A stretch of DNA of 64,000 nucleotides from Bordetella parapertussis (GTDB taxonomy: Bacteria; Pseudomonadota; Gammaproteobacteria; Burkholderiales; Thiobacillaceae): positions 1 to 64,000 of the forward strand of contig CAMDCO010000006.1 of NCBI GenBank assembly GCA_945890495.1. Reading direction: 5' to 3'. The notes beneath the pieces are model-generated. The model saw only the letters and a program-made list of their open reading frames with translations, was not told the origin of the DNA and searched no databases. Every line of letters begins with the position of its first letter. Within the stretch, counting starts at the first letter, position 1. A program made the position numbers and the translations under genes. This document shows positions 6,017-63,550 of the stretch, piece after piece.

Positions 6017-6200
6017 CGTAGGGGCAACCCCCCGTGGTTGCCCTGCATCCCCCCGTGGTTGCCCTGCATCCCCCTGTGGTCGCCCATTTACCACCAGGGC
6101 AGGCACAGGGGCCTGCCCCTACGAGGTGACCGCCCTTCAACAGGCGTAGGGGCAACCCCCTGTGGTTGCCCTGGTTGGGCAGGCACGAGGGCGGCCCCTG
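6017..6200. repeat. Cluster of palindromic G/C-rich repeat units
   Basis: Between the ABC exporter and the HAD gene lie two related units beginning GTAGGGGCAACCCCC, at 6017 and 6146. The first closes with the complementary GGGGCCTGCCCCTAC at 6108-6122, so the unit can fold end to end. Inside it a 21-base unit (core CCGTGGTTGCCCTGCATC) is repeated in tandem about 2.5 times. No ORF fits this sequence. It resembles dispersed intergenic REP-like palindromes rather than a single-copy regulator. Confidence 0.75.
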
Positions 6201-17488: not shown

Positions 17489-18352
17489 ATGAGTGCCGCC
17501 ACCACCACCCTCCTCAGCCCCGCCAACCACAACACGAATGTGTCCGGGATGACCTATGTCTATCCGGTGGTGTCGCGTCGCATGGGCGGGGTGTCGATCG
17601 GCATCAACCTCAACCCCAACAACGCCTGCAACTGGCATTGCGTCTATTGCCAGGTTCCTAACCTGACCCGTGGAGGCCCGCCACCGATCGACTTGGTGCA
17701 ACTGGAAAATGAACTACGCCACATGCTGCAGGAAATCGTCCTAGGCGACTTCATGGCCCAACATGTCCCCGAGGGCCTGCGCGTACTGAAAGACATCGCC
17801 TTTTCTGGCAACGGCGAGCCGACCAGCGCGGCGGCCTTTCCCGATGCCGTGGCCGTGGTGGGCCGGGTCATGGCCGATTTCGAATGGGTCAACAAGATCA
17901 ATGTCGTGCTCATCACCAACGGCAGCCTGATCGGCCAGGCCCGCGTCCAAAAAGGTCTCGCGGCCCTGAACGCGCTGGGCGGCGAACTGTGGTTCAAGAT
18001 CGACTCCGCCCTGCCCGCCGGCAACGCCCGCATCAATGGCCTGCGCCAGGAACCGCAACGGGTCATGCGTCGTCTTGCGATTGCCAGCCGCCTCTGCCGC
18101 ACCCGCATCCAGACCTGCGTATTTGCCGTAGATGGCCAACCCCCGAGCGCCACCGAAACGAACACCTACCTCGCCTTCCTGCGCCGCGCCCTGGCCGATG
18201 AACTGCCCCTCGCCGGCGTATTGCTCTACGGCCTGGCACGACCGTCCATGCAGGCCGGGGCAGAACACCTCTCGGCCCTGCCCGCCAGCTGGCTAGAGGC
18301 GCACGCCGAGCGCATCCGCGCCTTGGGCCTCAGCGTCCAGGTCAACCCCTGA
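17489..18352 (+). CDS. Radical SAM protein of unknown substrate
   Basis: A 287-residue protein with the iron-sulfur motif CNWHCVYC (about residues 49-56), followed by AFSGNGEPTSAAAFPDAV and VLITNGSLI, both typical of a radical SAM partial TIM barrel. The organisation resembles the COG0731 group (TYW1-like enzymes), but no activity can be assigned. ATG 17489 is divergent from mutY with 27 bases between. The gene ends just before a 274-base gap holding repeats and a hairpin. Confidence 0.82.
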   Translation: MSAATTTLLSPANHNTNVSGMTYVYPVVSRRMGGVSIGINLNPNNACNWHCVYCQVPNLTRGGPPPIDLVQLENELRHMLQEIVLGDFMAQHVPEGLRVLKDIAFSGNGEPTSAAAFPDAVAVVGRVMADFEWVNKINVVLITNGSLIGQARVQKGLAALNALGGELWFKIDSALPAGNARINGLRQEPQRVMRRLAIASRLCRTRIQTCVFAVDGQPPSATETNTYLAFLRRALADELPLAGVLLYGLARPSMQAGAEHLSALPASWLEAHAERIRALGLSVQVNP

Positions 18353-18478
18353 CAGGCTGCTGAAATACCCCCCCGGCCGGCGCACCTCTCCCTGCCGTCA
18401 GAAGTCAAGCTGCCGCCAATTCATTGCCCCCCCGCCTTCATGCGCAAATCCAACACCTTCACCGAGCTGTCGCAAGTA

Positions 18479-18500
18479 TCGTGCTCAAACTGGAGCACGA
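18479..18500. other. Perfect 8-bp hairpin in the gap before yjjJ
   Basis: TCGTGCTC and GAGCACGA pair perfectly around AAACTG. The gap 18353-18626 also contains a short open tail ending LEHEEYLR at a TAG (about 18511-18516), which could be the very end of a lost gene. I cannot identify it. No clear T-run follows the hairpin. Confidence 0.45.
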
Positions 18501-18588
18501 GGAGTATCTGCGTTAGGCGTCCGGCTTTAAATCGGGCCGTTTTTGTGAGTTTCAGGAAAATCAATGCTCGATTTCATTTTCGTGTAAT

Positions 18589-18624
18589 ATCCATTCAACT
18601 ATCCATTCAACTATCTATTCACCG
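18589..18624 (+). repeat. Three tandem 12-bp repeats directly upstream of the HipA-like gene
   Basis: ATCCATTCAACT occurs at 18589 and 18601, and an imperfect third copy (ATCTATTCACCG) at 18613, ending two bases before the ATG. They leave no room for a ribosome-binding site. A TAATAT sequence at 18585-18590 could be a -10 element. The array looks like an iterated operator for the winged-helix domain of the encoded protein. Confidence 0.65.
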
Positions 18625-18626
18625 GC

Positions 18627-19970
18627 ATGTCATCCACTCCTGAATCCATCTCGAAGCATCTTGCCATAGGCCCGCGCTCTGCGCGTCAACTCATTGAATA
18701 TTATAGAGTCAGTCAACCCACAGTGTCGCGCATCCTCAAGGGACTTGAGAGCGAAATCGTTCGAATCGGTGCGGCACGATCTATTCAATACGCGTTGCGT
18801 GACCGACTGCGAGGATTGCCCGACATCCCGGTTTATCGGGTGGACGCCGAAGGAAAGGTGCAAAAACTGGGCCTCCTGATTCCCGTGCGCCCCGAAGGTT
18901 TTGTCATGCGTCAGGAAGAGGGCATCACGCAACATAGTGAGAGCCTCCCCTGGTGGGTTTTCGACATGCGACTTCAAGGCTATCTAGGCCGTGCCTATGC
19001 CGCACGCCATGGCGCAATGCTCGGACTGCCCGAACGACTGACCGACTGGACGGATACCCATGCGTTGCTGGCATTGCTGGCCCATGGGCAGGATGTCATT
19101 GGCAATCTTTTATTGGGCGATTGGACACGCGACCGTTTTCTGACGGCCCCTCCCCCCATTTCAATCCCTGCACCGAAAAAACCAGAAGCCTATGTCCAAC
19201 TGGCCAAAAATGCCGCGCAGGGCGACCTGCCCGGTTCTTCCGCCGGCGGTGAACAACCGAAATTCACCGCGTTTGTCGAAACACCGGAAGGCCCACGCCA
19301 TGTCATCGTGAAATTTTCCGAACAGGAAAAAGGCCCCGTCAGCGAACGCTGGCGCGATTTGTTGTTGGCCGAACATCACGCATTGAACACGCTCGGAGGA
19401 GCCGGCTTCTCGGCAGCAAAAACACACCTCATCGACCATGAAGGGCAACGCTTTCTGGAAACAGAACGATTTGATCGCATCGGTTCTCAGGGACGGCAGG
19501 GCATTCTCTCGTTGGCCGCACTGGATGCGGAATTTGTCGGAGCCGGCGCGAACGGCTGGCCCCTCCTCACTCAGCGATTGGCCGCAGAAAAACATATTCC
19601 TCCTGAAGCGGCCGATCAGGCGGCATTTCTGTGGGCGTTCGGCACATTGATCGGAAATACCGACATGCACCACGGCAACCTGTCCTTCATCTCTAAACAG
19701 GAACGCCCCGACCGCCTGGCCCCGGCCTACGACATGACCCCCATGGCGTTTGCGCCGCGTACAGGGGGCGGATTGCCCGACACACTTTCAGAAGCCGTTA
19801 TCCACGCCAGCGTCTCCAACGAAACCTGGCGACACGCCGAAAAATGGGCGCGTGCGTTCCTCGGTCGCATCCAATCTGAATCAAGATTTAGCCAGCGATT
19901 TATTCCGTGCATCGTCGCACTGGATCATCACATTCAAACCGCAAGAGCAAAGATTGAACGGCTGGGGTGA
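18627..19970 (+). CDS. yjjJ: Solo HipA-family kinase toxin with N-terminal HTH (YjjJ type)
   Basis: A 447-residue protein. Residues about 18-40 (SARQLIEYYRVSQPTVSRILKGL) are a helix-turn-helix, then a HipA N-terminal domain, then the kinase: glycine-rich SSAGGEQPKF (204-213), ATP-lysine in VIVKF (229), catalytic GNTDMHHGN (343-351) and the metal-binding Asp in AYDMTP (369). HipA kinases phosphorylate aminoacyl-tRNA synthetases and cause dormancy. No separate hipB is present, as in E. coli yjjJ, so the HTH may serve as built-in antitoxin or repressor. Codon use is somewhat more AT-rich than its neighbours, suggesting acquisition. Confidence 0.9.
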   Translation: MSSTPESISKHLAIGPRSARQLIEYYRVSQPTVSRILKGLESEIVRIGAARSIQYALRDRLRGLPDIPVYRVDAEGKVQKLGLLIPVRPEGFVMRQEEGITQHSESLPWWVFDMRLQGYLGRAYAARHGAMLGLPERLTDWTDTHALLALLAHGQDVIGNLLLGDWTRDRFLTAPPPISIPAPKKPEAYVQLAKNAAQGDLPGSSAGGEQPKFTAFVETPEGPRHVIVKFSEQEKGPVSERWRDLLLAEHHALNTLGGAGFSAAKTHLIDHEGQRFLETERFDRIGSQGRQGILSLAALDAEFVGAGANGWPLLTQRLAAEKHIPPEAADQAAFLWAFGTLIGNTDMHHGNLSFISKQERPDRLAPAYDMTPMAFAPRTGGGLPDTLSEAVIHASVSNETWRHAEKWARAFLGRIQSESRFSQRFIPCIVALDHHIQTARAKIERLG

Positions 19971-50972: not shown

Positions 50973-51650
50973 TCACACCCGATAAACCAGCGCCTTCATC
51001 ACCTTCGCCATCCCTTGCATGGCGAACTTGACCGGCGCAGGCAGCGGCGCGCCGCCGTGGGCCACGGCGGTGTCGGCATGTTTCGCCTCATCCACCTTCA
51101 TCTGCTGCACCACGGCACGACTTTTTTGATCCTGCTGCGGCAGCCATTCGAGATGATCGTTGAGGTGGCCTTCCACCTGCCGCTCGGTCTCGGCCAGAAA
51201 GCCCAGATTCCACTTGTCGCCCAGGGCCCCGGCGAACATGCCGAGGCCAAACGAGCCGGCGTACCACAGCGGATTAGAGAGGCTCTTGTGGCTACCTAAG
51301 GCATCCAAGCGCTTTTCGCACCAGGCCAGATGTTCGGTTTCTTCGGCCGCCGCTTCAACCAGCGCCTTTTGCACGGCGCCATTGCGCGCGGTCAGCGCCT
51401 GCCCAGCGTACAGCGCCTGGGCACACACCTCGCCGGTATGATTGATACGCATCAGCCCAGCGGCGTGGCGGCGTTCAGCCTCGGATAATTCGCCCTCTGG
51501 CAGGGCCGCATCGGGATACGGGCGGCGCGACTGCGCGCTGGCAAACACCGTACGCAAGGCGTTGTCGAACTGGAGGATGACCTGCTCAGGCGTGGGCAAC
51601 GGCAATGGCAATGGCAATGGCAATGGCAATGGCAATGGCAATGGCAACAT
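50973..51650 (-). CDS. coq7: Ubiquinone di-iron hydroxylase Coq7
   Basis: Converts demethoxyubiquinone to demethylubiquinone. About 225 residues with di-iron ligands in [35 protein letters not shown] and [10 protein letters not shown]. The N-terminus is odd: it begins M followed by nine LP pairs made by a hexanucleotide repeat (51595-51648), and normal homology begins only at [17 protein letters not shown] 51650 is my choice; several TTG codons within the repeat are alternatives. It is next to ubiX, a related quinone gene. Confidence 0.9.
51595..51648. repeat. Hexanucleotide microsatellite (GGCAAT)n in the start of coq7
   Basis: Seven perfect GGCAAT units (51601-51642) with GGCAAC on each side, nine units in all. 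On the coding strand every unit reads as Pro-Leu (CCA TTG), so each offers a TTG that could serve as a start codon. Changes in copy number would alter the protein by two residues without a frameshift. Confidence 0.9.
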
Positions 51651-62785: not shown

Positions 62786-62815
62786 GTCGGCCTCAGCCCC
62801 TAAGCTCCTCAGCCC

Positions 62816-63550
62816 CTAAGCCGCCAGAATCAGCCGCTTCATCTCACTGACGGCGGGCGTCCAGCCGGTGAAGATGGCTTGAGCCACGATGGCATGACCG
62901 ATATTGAGTTCTTCAACCCCGGGAATGGCGGCAACCGCTTGGACATTCTGATAGTGCAGGCCATGACCCGCATTAACCTGCAGACCCAGATCTAGACCCC
63001 GCACCACCGCCCGCCGAATCCGCTCCAATTCTTCTACGGCCAACGGCCCTTCGGCCTCAGCAAAACGCCCCGTATGGATTTCCACTATGGGTGCCCCGAC
63101 CGCACGCGCGGCCTCCAGTTGCCGCGCCTCAGCATCAATGAACAGCGAGACCCGGATGCCCGCCGCGCCAAGCCGCTGACACGCATCGCGCATACGGTCC
63201 ATCTGCCCGGCCACATCCAGGCCACCCTCTGTGGTGAGTTCCTGACGGCGTTCCGGAACCAGACAGACATCCTGAGGCCGCACCTTGAGGGCGATGCCGA
63301 TCATCTCCTCGGTGACCGCCATCTCCAGATTCATGCGCGTCTTCAGCAGGGGCCGCAGGGTGAACACATCGGCATCCTGAATATGGCGCCGATCTTCGCG
63401 CAGATGCAGGGTGATCAGGTCAGCACCCGCGGCCTCGGCCAGCAAGGCGGCCTCAATGGGACTGGGGTAGGGTGTGCCTCTGGCTTGGCGCAAGGTGGCC
63501 ACATGGTCGATGTTGACGCCGAGTTTTCGGGTTAGGCTGGCTGGATTCAT
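62816..63550 (-). CDS. pdxJ: Pyridoxine 5'-phosphate synthase PdxJ
   Basis: Makes pyridoxine 5'-phosphate from 1-deoxyxylulose-5-P and aminoacetone phosphate. A 244-residue TIM-barrel with [16 protein letters not shown] at the start, HLREDRRHI and [11 protein letters not shown]. It is 5 bases downstream of recO. Its substrate comes from the dxs product. Confidence 0.95.

What the first reader, a model, noticed from the sequence alone, without database searches (positions are those of the whole stretch)
18585..18645. Solo HipA kinase behind three tandem 12-bp repeats and no ribosome-binding site
Seen: ATCCATTCAACT repeats run almost to the ATG of yjjJ. There is no Shine-Dalgarno sequence, and a TAATAT is placed so that the transcript could be nearly leaderless. 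Inference: expression could be held very low and controlled by the protein's own HTH bound to the iterated sites. Repeat number could vary.
Basis: partly seen in the sequence, partly recalled or inferred. Interest (0 to 1): 0.5.

Follow-up and report, generated by a model that had tools for sequence, protein, structure and literature searches.

The report
Iterated self-operator of HipH toxin kinase
The short repeats in front of this lone toxin-like kinase gene look like docking sites for the kinase's own DNA-binding end, spaced every 12 bases and found in the same place in many related bacteria including E. coli, so the protein probably shuts off its own gene.

Summary
Confirmed: three 12-bp units (TATCCATTCAAC x2, TATCTATTCACC; 18588-18623) end 3 bp before the ATG of a solo yjjJ/hipH gene (18627-19967) without a Shine-Dalgarno. 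They are not slippage DNA: in 77 of 85 non-redundant orthologues ATTCA recurs at exactly 12 bp before the start (shuffles: mean 0.16 of 85). E. coli K-12 hipH has three units too. A further copy, ATCTATTCAA (18779-18788), lies in the codons of the winged-helix wing and is conserved beyond protein needs: Ile53 is ATT in 70 of 70 genes (24.7 expected). The motif changes with the recognition helix (Gln30: ATTCA; Arg30: GTTTCA/GTTGCA) at the same 12-bp pitch. Best reading: HipH represses its own gene by binding head-to-tail on an iterated operator, often helped by a remote site. Binding and repression are inferred. Against: a published ChIP-exo screen found no YjjJ sites, and many E. coli strains keep the array without hipH. 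The transcript is probably not leaderless (predicted leader about 30 nt). Unit number does vary (2, 3 or 4 in E. coli). New variant of a known kind (toxin autoregulation).

The parts
18627..19967 (+). hipH/yjjJ: 447-aa winged-helix HTH plus HipA-like kinase, no adjacent antitoxin gene recognised (coordinates without the stop codon)
   Evidence: NCBIfam NF007297 567.5 bits against a cut-off of 401; Pfam HipA_C; AlphaFold model mean pLDDT 88.4, best PDB folds HipA; neighbours scanned
18588..18599 (+). operator unit 1 (ATTCA at 18593)
18600..18611 (+). operator unit 2 (ATTCA at 18605)
18612..18623 (+). operator unit 3 (ATTCA at 18617)
18779..18788 (+). intragenic site ATCTATTCAA: last base of codon 51 and codons 52-54 (wing of the winged helix); its ATTCA lies 166 bp from that of unit 3
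   Evidence: only match in the window; synonymous constraint; positional scan; codon table
18583..18588 (+). putative -10 hexamer TGTAAT abutting the array
   Evidence: register with orthologues; inference, no promoter hit in the simple scan
18714..18743 (+). codons of the HTH recognition helix (residues 30-39); Gln30 and Ser34 covary with the motif
18519..18539 (+). terminator-like hairpin upstream, setting the gene off from the preceding one
   Evidence: 2 overlapping sites found against a mean of 0.1 in shuffles

Best explanation
The repeats are an iterated operator for HipH itself. HipH monomers are proposed to sit head-to-tail on 12-bp direct repeats, each reading TCTATTCA with helix 30-39, where they cover the transcription start and repress hipH. 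A remote copy (inside the gene here and in most close orthologues; about 100 bp upstream of the start in E. coli-type genes) probably helps by cooperative bridging where it is present. Shown by comparison: position, pitch, strand, conservation, intragenic constraint, covariation with the recognition helix. Inferred: binding, repression, head-to-tail oligomers, bridging, and any effect of DNA binding on kinase activity.
For: (1) 77 of 85 non-redundant orthologues (the window's gene included) have at least 2 and 50 of 85 at least 3 ATTCA at 12-bp spacing in -100..-1; 200 shuffles give means of 0.155 and 0.005; on the other strand 0 of 85. (2) A matrix scan of 83 loci from -400 to +1000 gives 189 forward hits at -60..0 (partly by construction, the matrix being built from these arrays), 57 at +140..+159 and 11 elsewhere. 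(3) Codons 51, 53 and 52 rank 1st, 2nd and 4th of 397 for codon choice beyond each gene's own usage; Ile53 is ATT in 70 of 70, 24.7 expected. (4) Covariation: Gln30 homologues have ATTCA pairs at 12 bp in 84 of 96 and GTTKCA pairs in 0 of 96; Arg30 homologues have GTTKCA pairs in 7 of 8 and ATTCA pairs in 0 of 8. With Thr34 the base before ATTCA is T in 0 of 12 units, against 137 of 200 with Ser34. (5) E. coli K-12 hipH has 3 units plus one about 100 bp upstream. Between two E. coli alleles the operator units are identical at 44 of 44 bases but the spacer at only 22 of 54. (6) Published Reg-Seq lists the E. coli yjjJ promoter with two repressor-type sites, one assigned to MarA, the other unassigned (PMC7567609, passages).
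Against: A ChIP-exo screen of tagged YjjJ in E. coli found no binding sites (PMC8464067, passages); weak expression or the wrong condition could explain that, but it is a direct negative. Many E. coli genomes carry an XRE-type gene in place of hipH yet keep the array (43 of the 60 spread rows are annotated with an HTH/XRE gene and 15 with yjjJ), so something else may use it, or it is a relic. Arg30 is a single clade, and the Thr34 rows look like one group, so the covariation rests on few events. 24 of 85 close orthologues have neither an intragenic nor a distal site at the thresholds used, so the remote site is not universal. The repressor sites of Reg-Seq were not matched here to the array coordinates. 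The codon test ignores shared descent.
Confidence: 0.8

Rival explanations
1. Another regulator, not HipH, binds the array (a HipB-like or XRE protein, or a global regulator).
For: E. coli strains without hipH but with an XRE-type gene keep the array. HipB rescues YjjJ toxicity (PMC9948734, passages).
Against: The array goes with hipH across many families and changes with HipH's own recognition helix. HipB's palindrome TATCCN8GGATA is absent from the window even with one mismatch. A relative of the E. coli XRE protein turned up in only 1 of 247 genomes of the order of G443 (Enterobacter), weakly (37% identity).
Confidence: 0.11
2. The repeats act in the mRNA leader (translation control or RNA-protein binding), since the copies lie on the sense strand.
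For: Sense-strand arrays only; the leader has no Shine-Dalgarno; array and intragenic copies would both be transcribed in the window.
Against: E. coli-type genes have a copy about 100 bp upstream, outside the expected transcript. The motif tracks a DNA-recognition helix. No Rfam family reaches its gathering score at 18300-19000.
Confidence: 0.05
3. Chance or slippage tandem repeat without function.
For: The first two units are identical in the window, and unit number varies in E. coli.
Against: Core and pitch are conserved while the spacers differ; 77 of 85 orthologues against 0.155 in shuffles.
Confidence: 0.01
4. The array is a recombination or allele-exchange site, with operator function secondary.
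For: In E. coli hipH and an XRE-type gene stand in the same place directly after the array, and SCU-124 (L146) joins a K-12-type upstream part to the XRE-type gene.
Against: It does not explain the wing-codon site or the helix covariation. Exchange in other lineages was not looked for.
Confidence: 0.03

Closest known systems
hipBA operon autoregulation by HipB (E. coli)
   Same: A HipA-type kinase gene with several operators over its promoter; autorepression.
   Different: There a separate HipB dimer binds palindromes (TATCCN8GGATA; PMC3920265, passages); here the HTH is fused to the kinase, the sites are direct repeats, and one lies inside the gene.
HipH/YjjJ family (Hip clade X, monocistronic)
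   Same: Same gene family; the HTH was suggested to bind DNA (PMC8262856, passages).
   Different: No HipH operator is given in the passages read; 'direct repeat' and 'inverted repeat' occur 0 times in that main text.
BldC of Streptomyces
   Same: Asymmetric head-to-tail oligomers on DNA direct repeats, with sites of varying length (PMC5859096, abstract and outline).
   Different: MerR-like 68-residue protein, not a winged helix fused to a kinase; likeness of mode only.
lac and gal operators inside the first gene (recalled, no call)
   Same: A remote operator inside the coding region assisting repression.
   Different: Here the intragenic site is written in the codons of the presumed repressor's own DNA-binding wing.

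Membership tests
HipH/YjjJ (NF007297) | Score above the family cut-off over the whole length | tested here: met
   567.5 bits against 401, residues 5-446
HipH/YjjJ (NF007297) | Single gene, N-terminal HTH, no adjacent antitoxin gene | tested here: met
   winged helix at residues 4-58 in the model; neighbours are a radical-SAM-like ORF (below cut-off) and an M23 peptidase, and the 67-aa and 115-aa ORFs beside or over the start match no Pfam family at E <= 0.01; a small unrecognised antitoxin cannot be excluded
HipH/YjjJ (NF007297) | Ser/Thr kinase activity | not testable with these tools
   HipA_C domain found; activity reported for the E. coli protein (PMC9948734, passages)
hipBA module | Separate HipB antitoxin gene next to the kinase | tested here: not met
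   no HTH family among the six neighbouring or overlapping ORFs scanned
hipBA module | Palindromic TATCCN8GGATA operators | tested here: not met
   0 matches in the window with up to 1 mismatch
Autorepressed by its own HTH (mode of action) | Operator covaries with the protein's recognition helix | tested here: met
   few independent events
Autorepressed by its own HTH (mode of action) | Protein binds the array and represses | not testable with these tools
   a published E. coli ChIP-exo found no sites (PMC8464067, passages)
BldC-like head-to-tail binder (mode of action) | Direct repeats of constant pitch and variable number | tested here: met
   12-bp pitch; among 85 orthologues the longest array has 1 unit in 8, 2 in 27, 3 in 39, 4 in 11
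BldC-like head-to-tail binder (mode of action) | Head-to-tail protein contacts on DNA | not testable with these tools
   needs a structure of the complex

The most novel reading that the evidence does not exclude
HipH is a one-protein toxin-antitoxin module. Its HTH tiles 12-bp direct repeats as a head-to-tail filament and bridges to a remote operator that is written in the codons of its own DNA-binding wing, so operator and DNA-binding domain evolve as one stretch of DNA; DNA-bound HipH is both repressor and silenced kinase. The array's unit count then sets the toxin dose and can shift by slippage.
Probability: 0.3. Interest if true: 0.8.

Novelty: new variant of a known kind. Interest (0 to 1): 0.62.

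Why it matters
How the kinase activity of YjjJ/HipH, the solo Hip kinase of E. coli and relatives, is controlled is called unknown in the Hip phylogeny paper (PMC8262856, passages). This gives a concrete candidate operator, a recognition helix that would read it, and a natural series of unit numbers and motif switches to test. It offers a reason to repeat the negative ChIP-exo under conditions in which hipH is expressed, and it would be an unusual case of an operator inside the codons of the DNA-binding domain itself.

Tried and rejected
Considered and dropped: slippage repeat (spacers diverge while core and pitch stay); HipB palindrome; Rfam element (0 matches); a second regulon target (a consensus-like pair in G092:C9 lies inside a 366-aa ORF and is read as chance; the four other stretches fetched were not examined further, so other targets are not excluded); a rule 'either intragenic or distal site' (fails for 24 of 85). 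The XRE-type gene of E. coli was followed as a possible partner: one weak relative in 247 genomes. A same-genus comparison of repeat number was impossible: 0 of 4 same-genus genomes, 72-91% complete, have a hipH match.

Rows dropped before counts: 15 of 112 (L103 cut, L035 frame broken, 13 under 48% identity; the 97 kept include the window's gene and near-copies), 96 eligible rows reduced to 85 at under 90% identity, 2 of 85 for short flanks, L154-L157, L166, L169 and L170 left out as copies or cut, and the Arg30-type L162 and L168 fell out because the reading began at a stop upstream of their start (both show 12-bp repeats of the Arg30 kind by eye). The high ranks of serine codons 104, 239 and 29 are inflated by the AGY/TCN split (my inference). 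The matrix was built from the same arrays. Single-strand folding, tRNA search, and the plasmid, phage and viral collections were not used.

Full report
What is there. The window holds a solo hipH (yjjJ) gene at 18627-19967, family NF007297 with 567.5 bits against a cut-off of 401. The AlphaFold model (mean pLDDT 88.4) has a winged helix at the N-terminus, with helix 30-39 in the recognition position and strands 44-47 and 54-58 forming the wing; overall the best solved folds are HipA chains, and by sequence only two solved relatives, HipT and a HipA_C protein, were found. Neighbouring ORFs give no antitoxin-like family. In front of the ATG lie three 12-bp units at 18588-18623. The paired core YATTCAN6YATTCA is found nowhere else in the window or in the 1.69-Mb assembly, which is 80.8% complete.

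Not a slippage repeat. Orthologues came from whole genomes and named contigs (best 80 of a capped list). In 97 orthologues of at least 48% identity, near-copies included, YATTCA pairs in -100..+12 occur 101 times at spacing 12, 35 at 24, 6 at 36 and 25 at all other spacings together. In 85 representatives under 90% identity, 77 have at least two and 50 at least three ATTCA at 12 bp; dinucleotide shuffles give 0.155 and 0.005 on average, and the opposite strand gives 0. Core and pitch are kept; the bases between vary. The usual place of the last core is 10 bases before the start codon (43 of 77). E. coli K-12 hipH carries three units and one more about 100 bp upstream of its start.

An intragenic copy. 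The sequence ATCTATTCAA at 18779-18788 covers the last base of codon 51 and codons 52-54. A matrix scan of 83 loci from -400 to +1000 (score at least 10) gives 189 forward hits at -60..0, 57 at +140..+159 and 11 elsewhere, and 13 on the reverse strand; the matrix was built from the upstream arrays, so only the second and later numbers are independent of it. In a codon-choice test of 397 columns against each gene's own usage, Arg51 (z 13.3), Ile53 (11.7) and Ser52 (9.5) rank 1st, 2nd and 4th, against a mean z of 2.1; Ile53 is ATT in 70 of 70 genes where 24.7 are expected. The test ignores shared descent, but genes with very high third-position GC keep ATT too. These codons encode the turn and start of the second strand of the wing. 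At the threshold used the site is present in 60 of 85; of the 25 without it only 1 has a distal upstream site. Eight of eight more distant homologues scanned that lack it (E. coli and L036-L038, L040-L043) do have an upstream one, and L131 and L132 have one by eye; background windows of 94 nt have one in 7 of 400.

Who reads the repeats. A search for 9-mers repeated in the upstream region, without assuming a motif, gives 12 bp as the best spacing in the Gln30 group (weighted count 54.7 of 96) and in the others (7.8 of 13). Motif and recognition helix change together. With Gln30, ATTCA pairs occur in 84 of 96 and GTTKCA pairs in 0. With Arg30, GTTKCA pairs occur in 7 of 8 and ATTCA pairs in 0. 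Five Val30 or Ser30 homologues have neither; L045 (TCTTCTCA, one distal and one proximal) and L047 (GTTTAGCA pair at 12 bp) show other motifs, L039 and L159 show no clear one, and L134 has no array. Within the Gln30 group, Thr34 in place of Ser34 goes with loss of T before ATTCA (0 of 12 units against 137 of 200). A tree of 47 proteins makes Arg30 one clade, so these are a handful of events, not dozens. I take this as the strongest sign that HipH reads its own array.

Promoter and leader. In 28 of the 77 orthologues with arrays a hexamer with at least 5 of 6 matches to TATAAT begins exactly 10 bases before the first core, the commonest offset. In the window this is TGTAAT, 18583-18588. The expected start then lies in the first unit, with a leader of about 30 nt, so binding would cover the start site (inference). 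The simple promoter scan found nothing here, while a terminator-like hairpin lies upstream at 18519-18539. 84 of 85 orthologues lack a Shine-Dalgarno-like tetramer; no control genes were counted.

Variation within E. coli. 5347 of 5426 complete genomes match the K-12 upstream region. In 14 loci read, 12 have three units, one four (ETEC1720, exactly +12 bp) and one two (Q65). In the 60 spread rows, 15 carry yjjJ, 43 an HTH/XRE-type gene and 2 nothing annotated under the match. In the ten loci read with that gene (L140, L142, L146-L153) the ATTCA cores are intact, though the base before the first core varies in eight and Q65 has lost a unit. Against K-12 one such allele (L140) is identical at 44 of 44 operator-unit bases and at 22 of 54 spacer bases. 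Either this allele came in with its own array or something still uses it. This is unexplained and counts against a purely hipH-bound operator.

Literature seen. The Hip phylogeny paper says the HTH may bind DNA and that control of YjjJ kinase activity is unknown (PMC8262856, passages). The kinase paper has 0 occurrences of 'operator' and 'autoregul' in its main text (PMC9948734, passages). ChIP-exo found no YjjJ binding and took the protein to lack an HTH (PMC8464067, passages). Reg-Seq lists yjjJ as (0,2), two repressor-type sites, one assigned to MarA (PMC7567609, passages); a later neural-network study failed to recover a RegulonDB site at yjjJ (PMC13052891, passage). A 2024 paper reports that c-di-GMP acts at the hipH promoter (PMC11452175, passages). 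An RpoD survey lists a yjjJ promoter TTTTCA-18-TCTATT, whose -10 falls in the first repeat unit by my reading (PMC3946193, passage). I saw no report of the array in those passages; the searches were 'yjjJ'+'HipA', 'yjjJ'+'ChIP-exo', a HipH/autoregulation set, 'yjjJ'+'genomic SELEX' and 'yjjJ' alone (42 papers, 40 listed). Most listed papers were not opened, and the 2017 YjjJ paper was not seen (known only from reference lists).

Verdict. Binding, repression, bridging and any link to kinase activity remain inferences.

Noticed in passing
L140 3665-3928, L142 2665-2928, L146 1734-1997 (E. coli): An 88-codon XRE-type gene on the opposite strand stands in place of hipH between deoD and lplA in many E. 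coli strains, broken in some (internal stop in L140, frameshift in L153, IS insertions in L152), yet the repeat array beside it is kept.
   Followed up: partly
window 18687-18704, codons 21-26: Codons Gln21 (CAA), Glu24 (GAA) and Ile26 (ATT) also show codon choice beyond usage (z 7.0, 6.2, 5.8); no motif was identified.
   Followed up: no
window 51595-51647: Hexamer GGCAAT repeated about 8.8 times at 97%, not examined further.
   Followed up: no
window 6024-6085 and 62791-62821: Three 21-bp tandem copies (92%) and a perfect 16-bp tandem pair, not examined.
   Followed up: no
same-genus genomes G001-G004: 0 of 4 same-genus genomes (72-91% complete) have a hipH match, so the gene may be patchy: lost there or gained here.
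   Followed up: no
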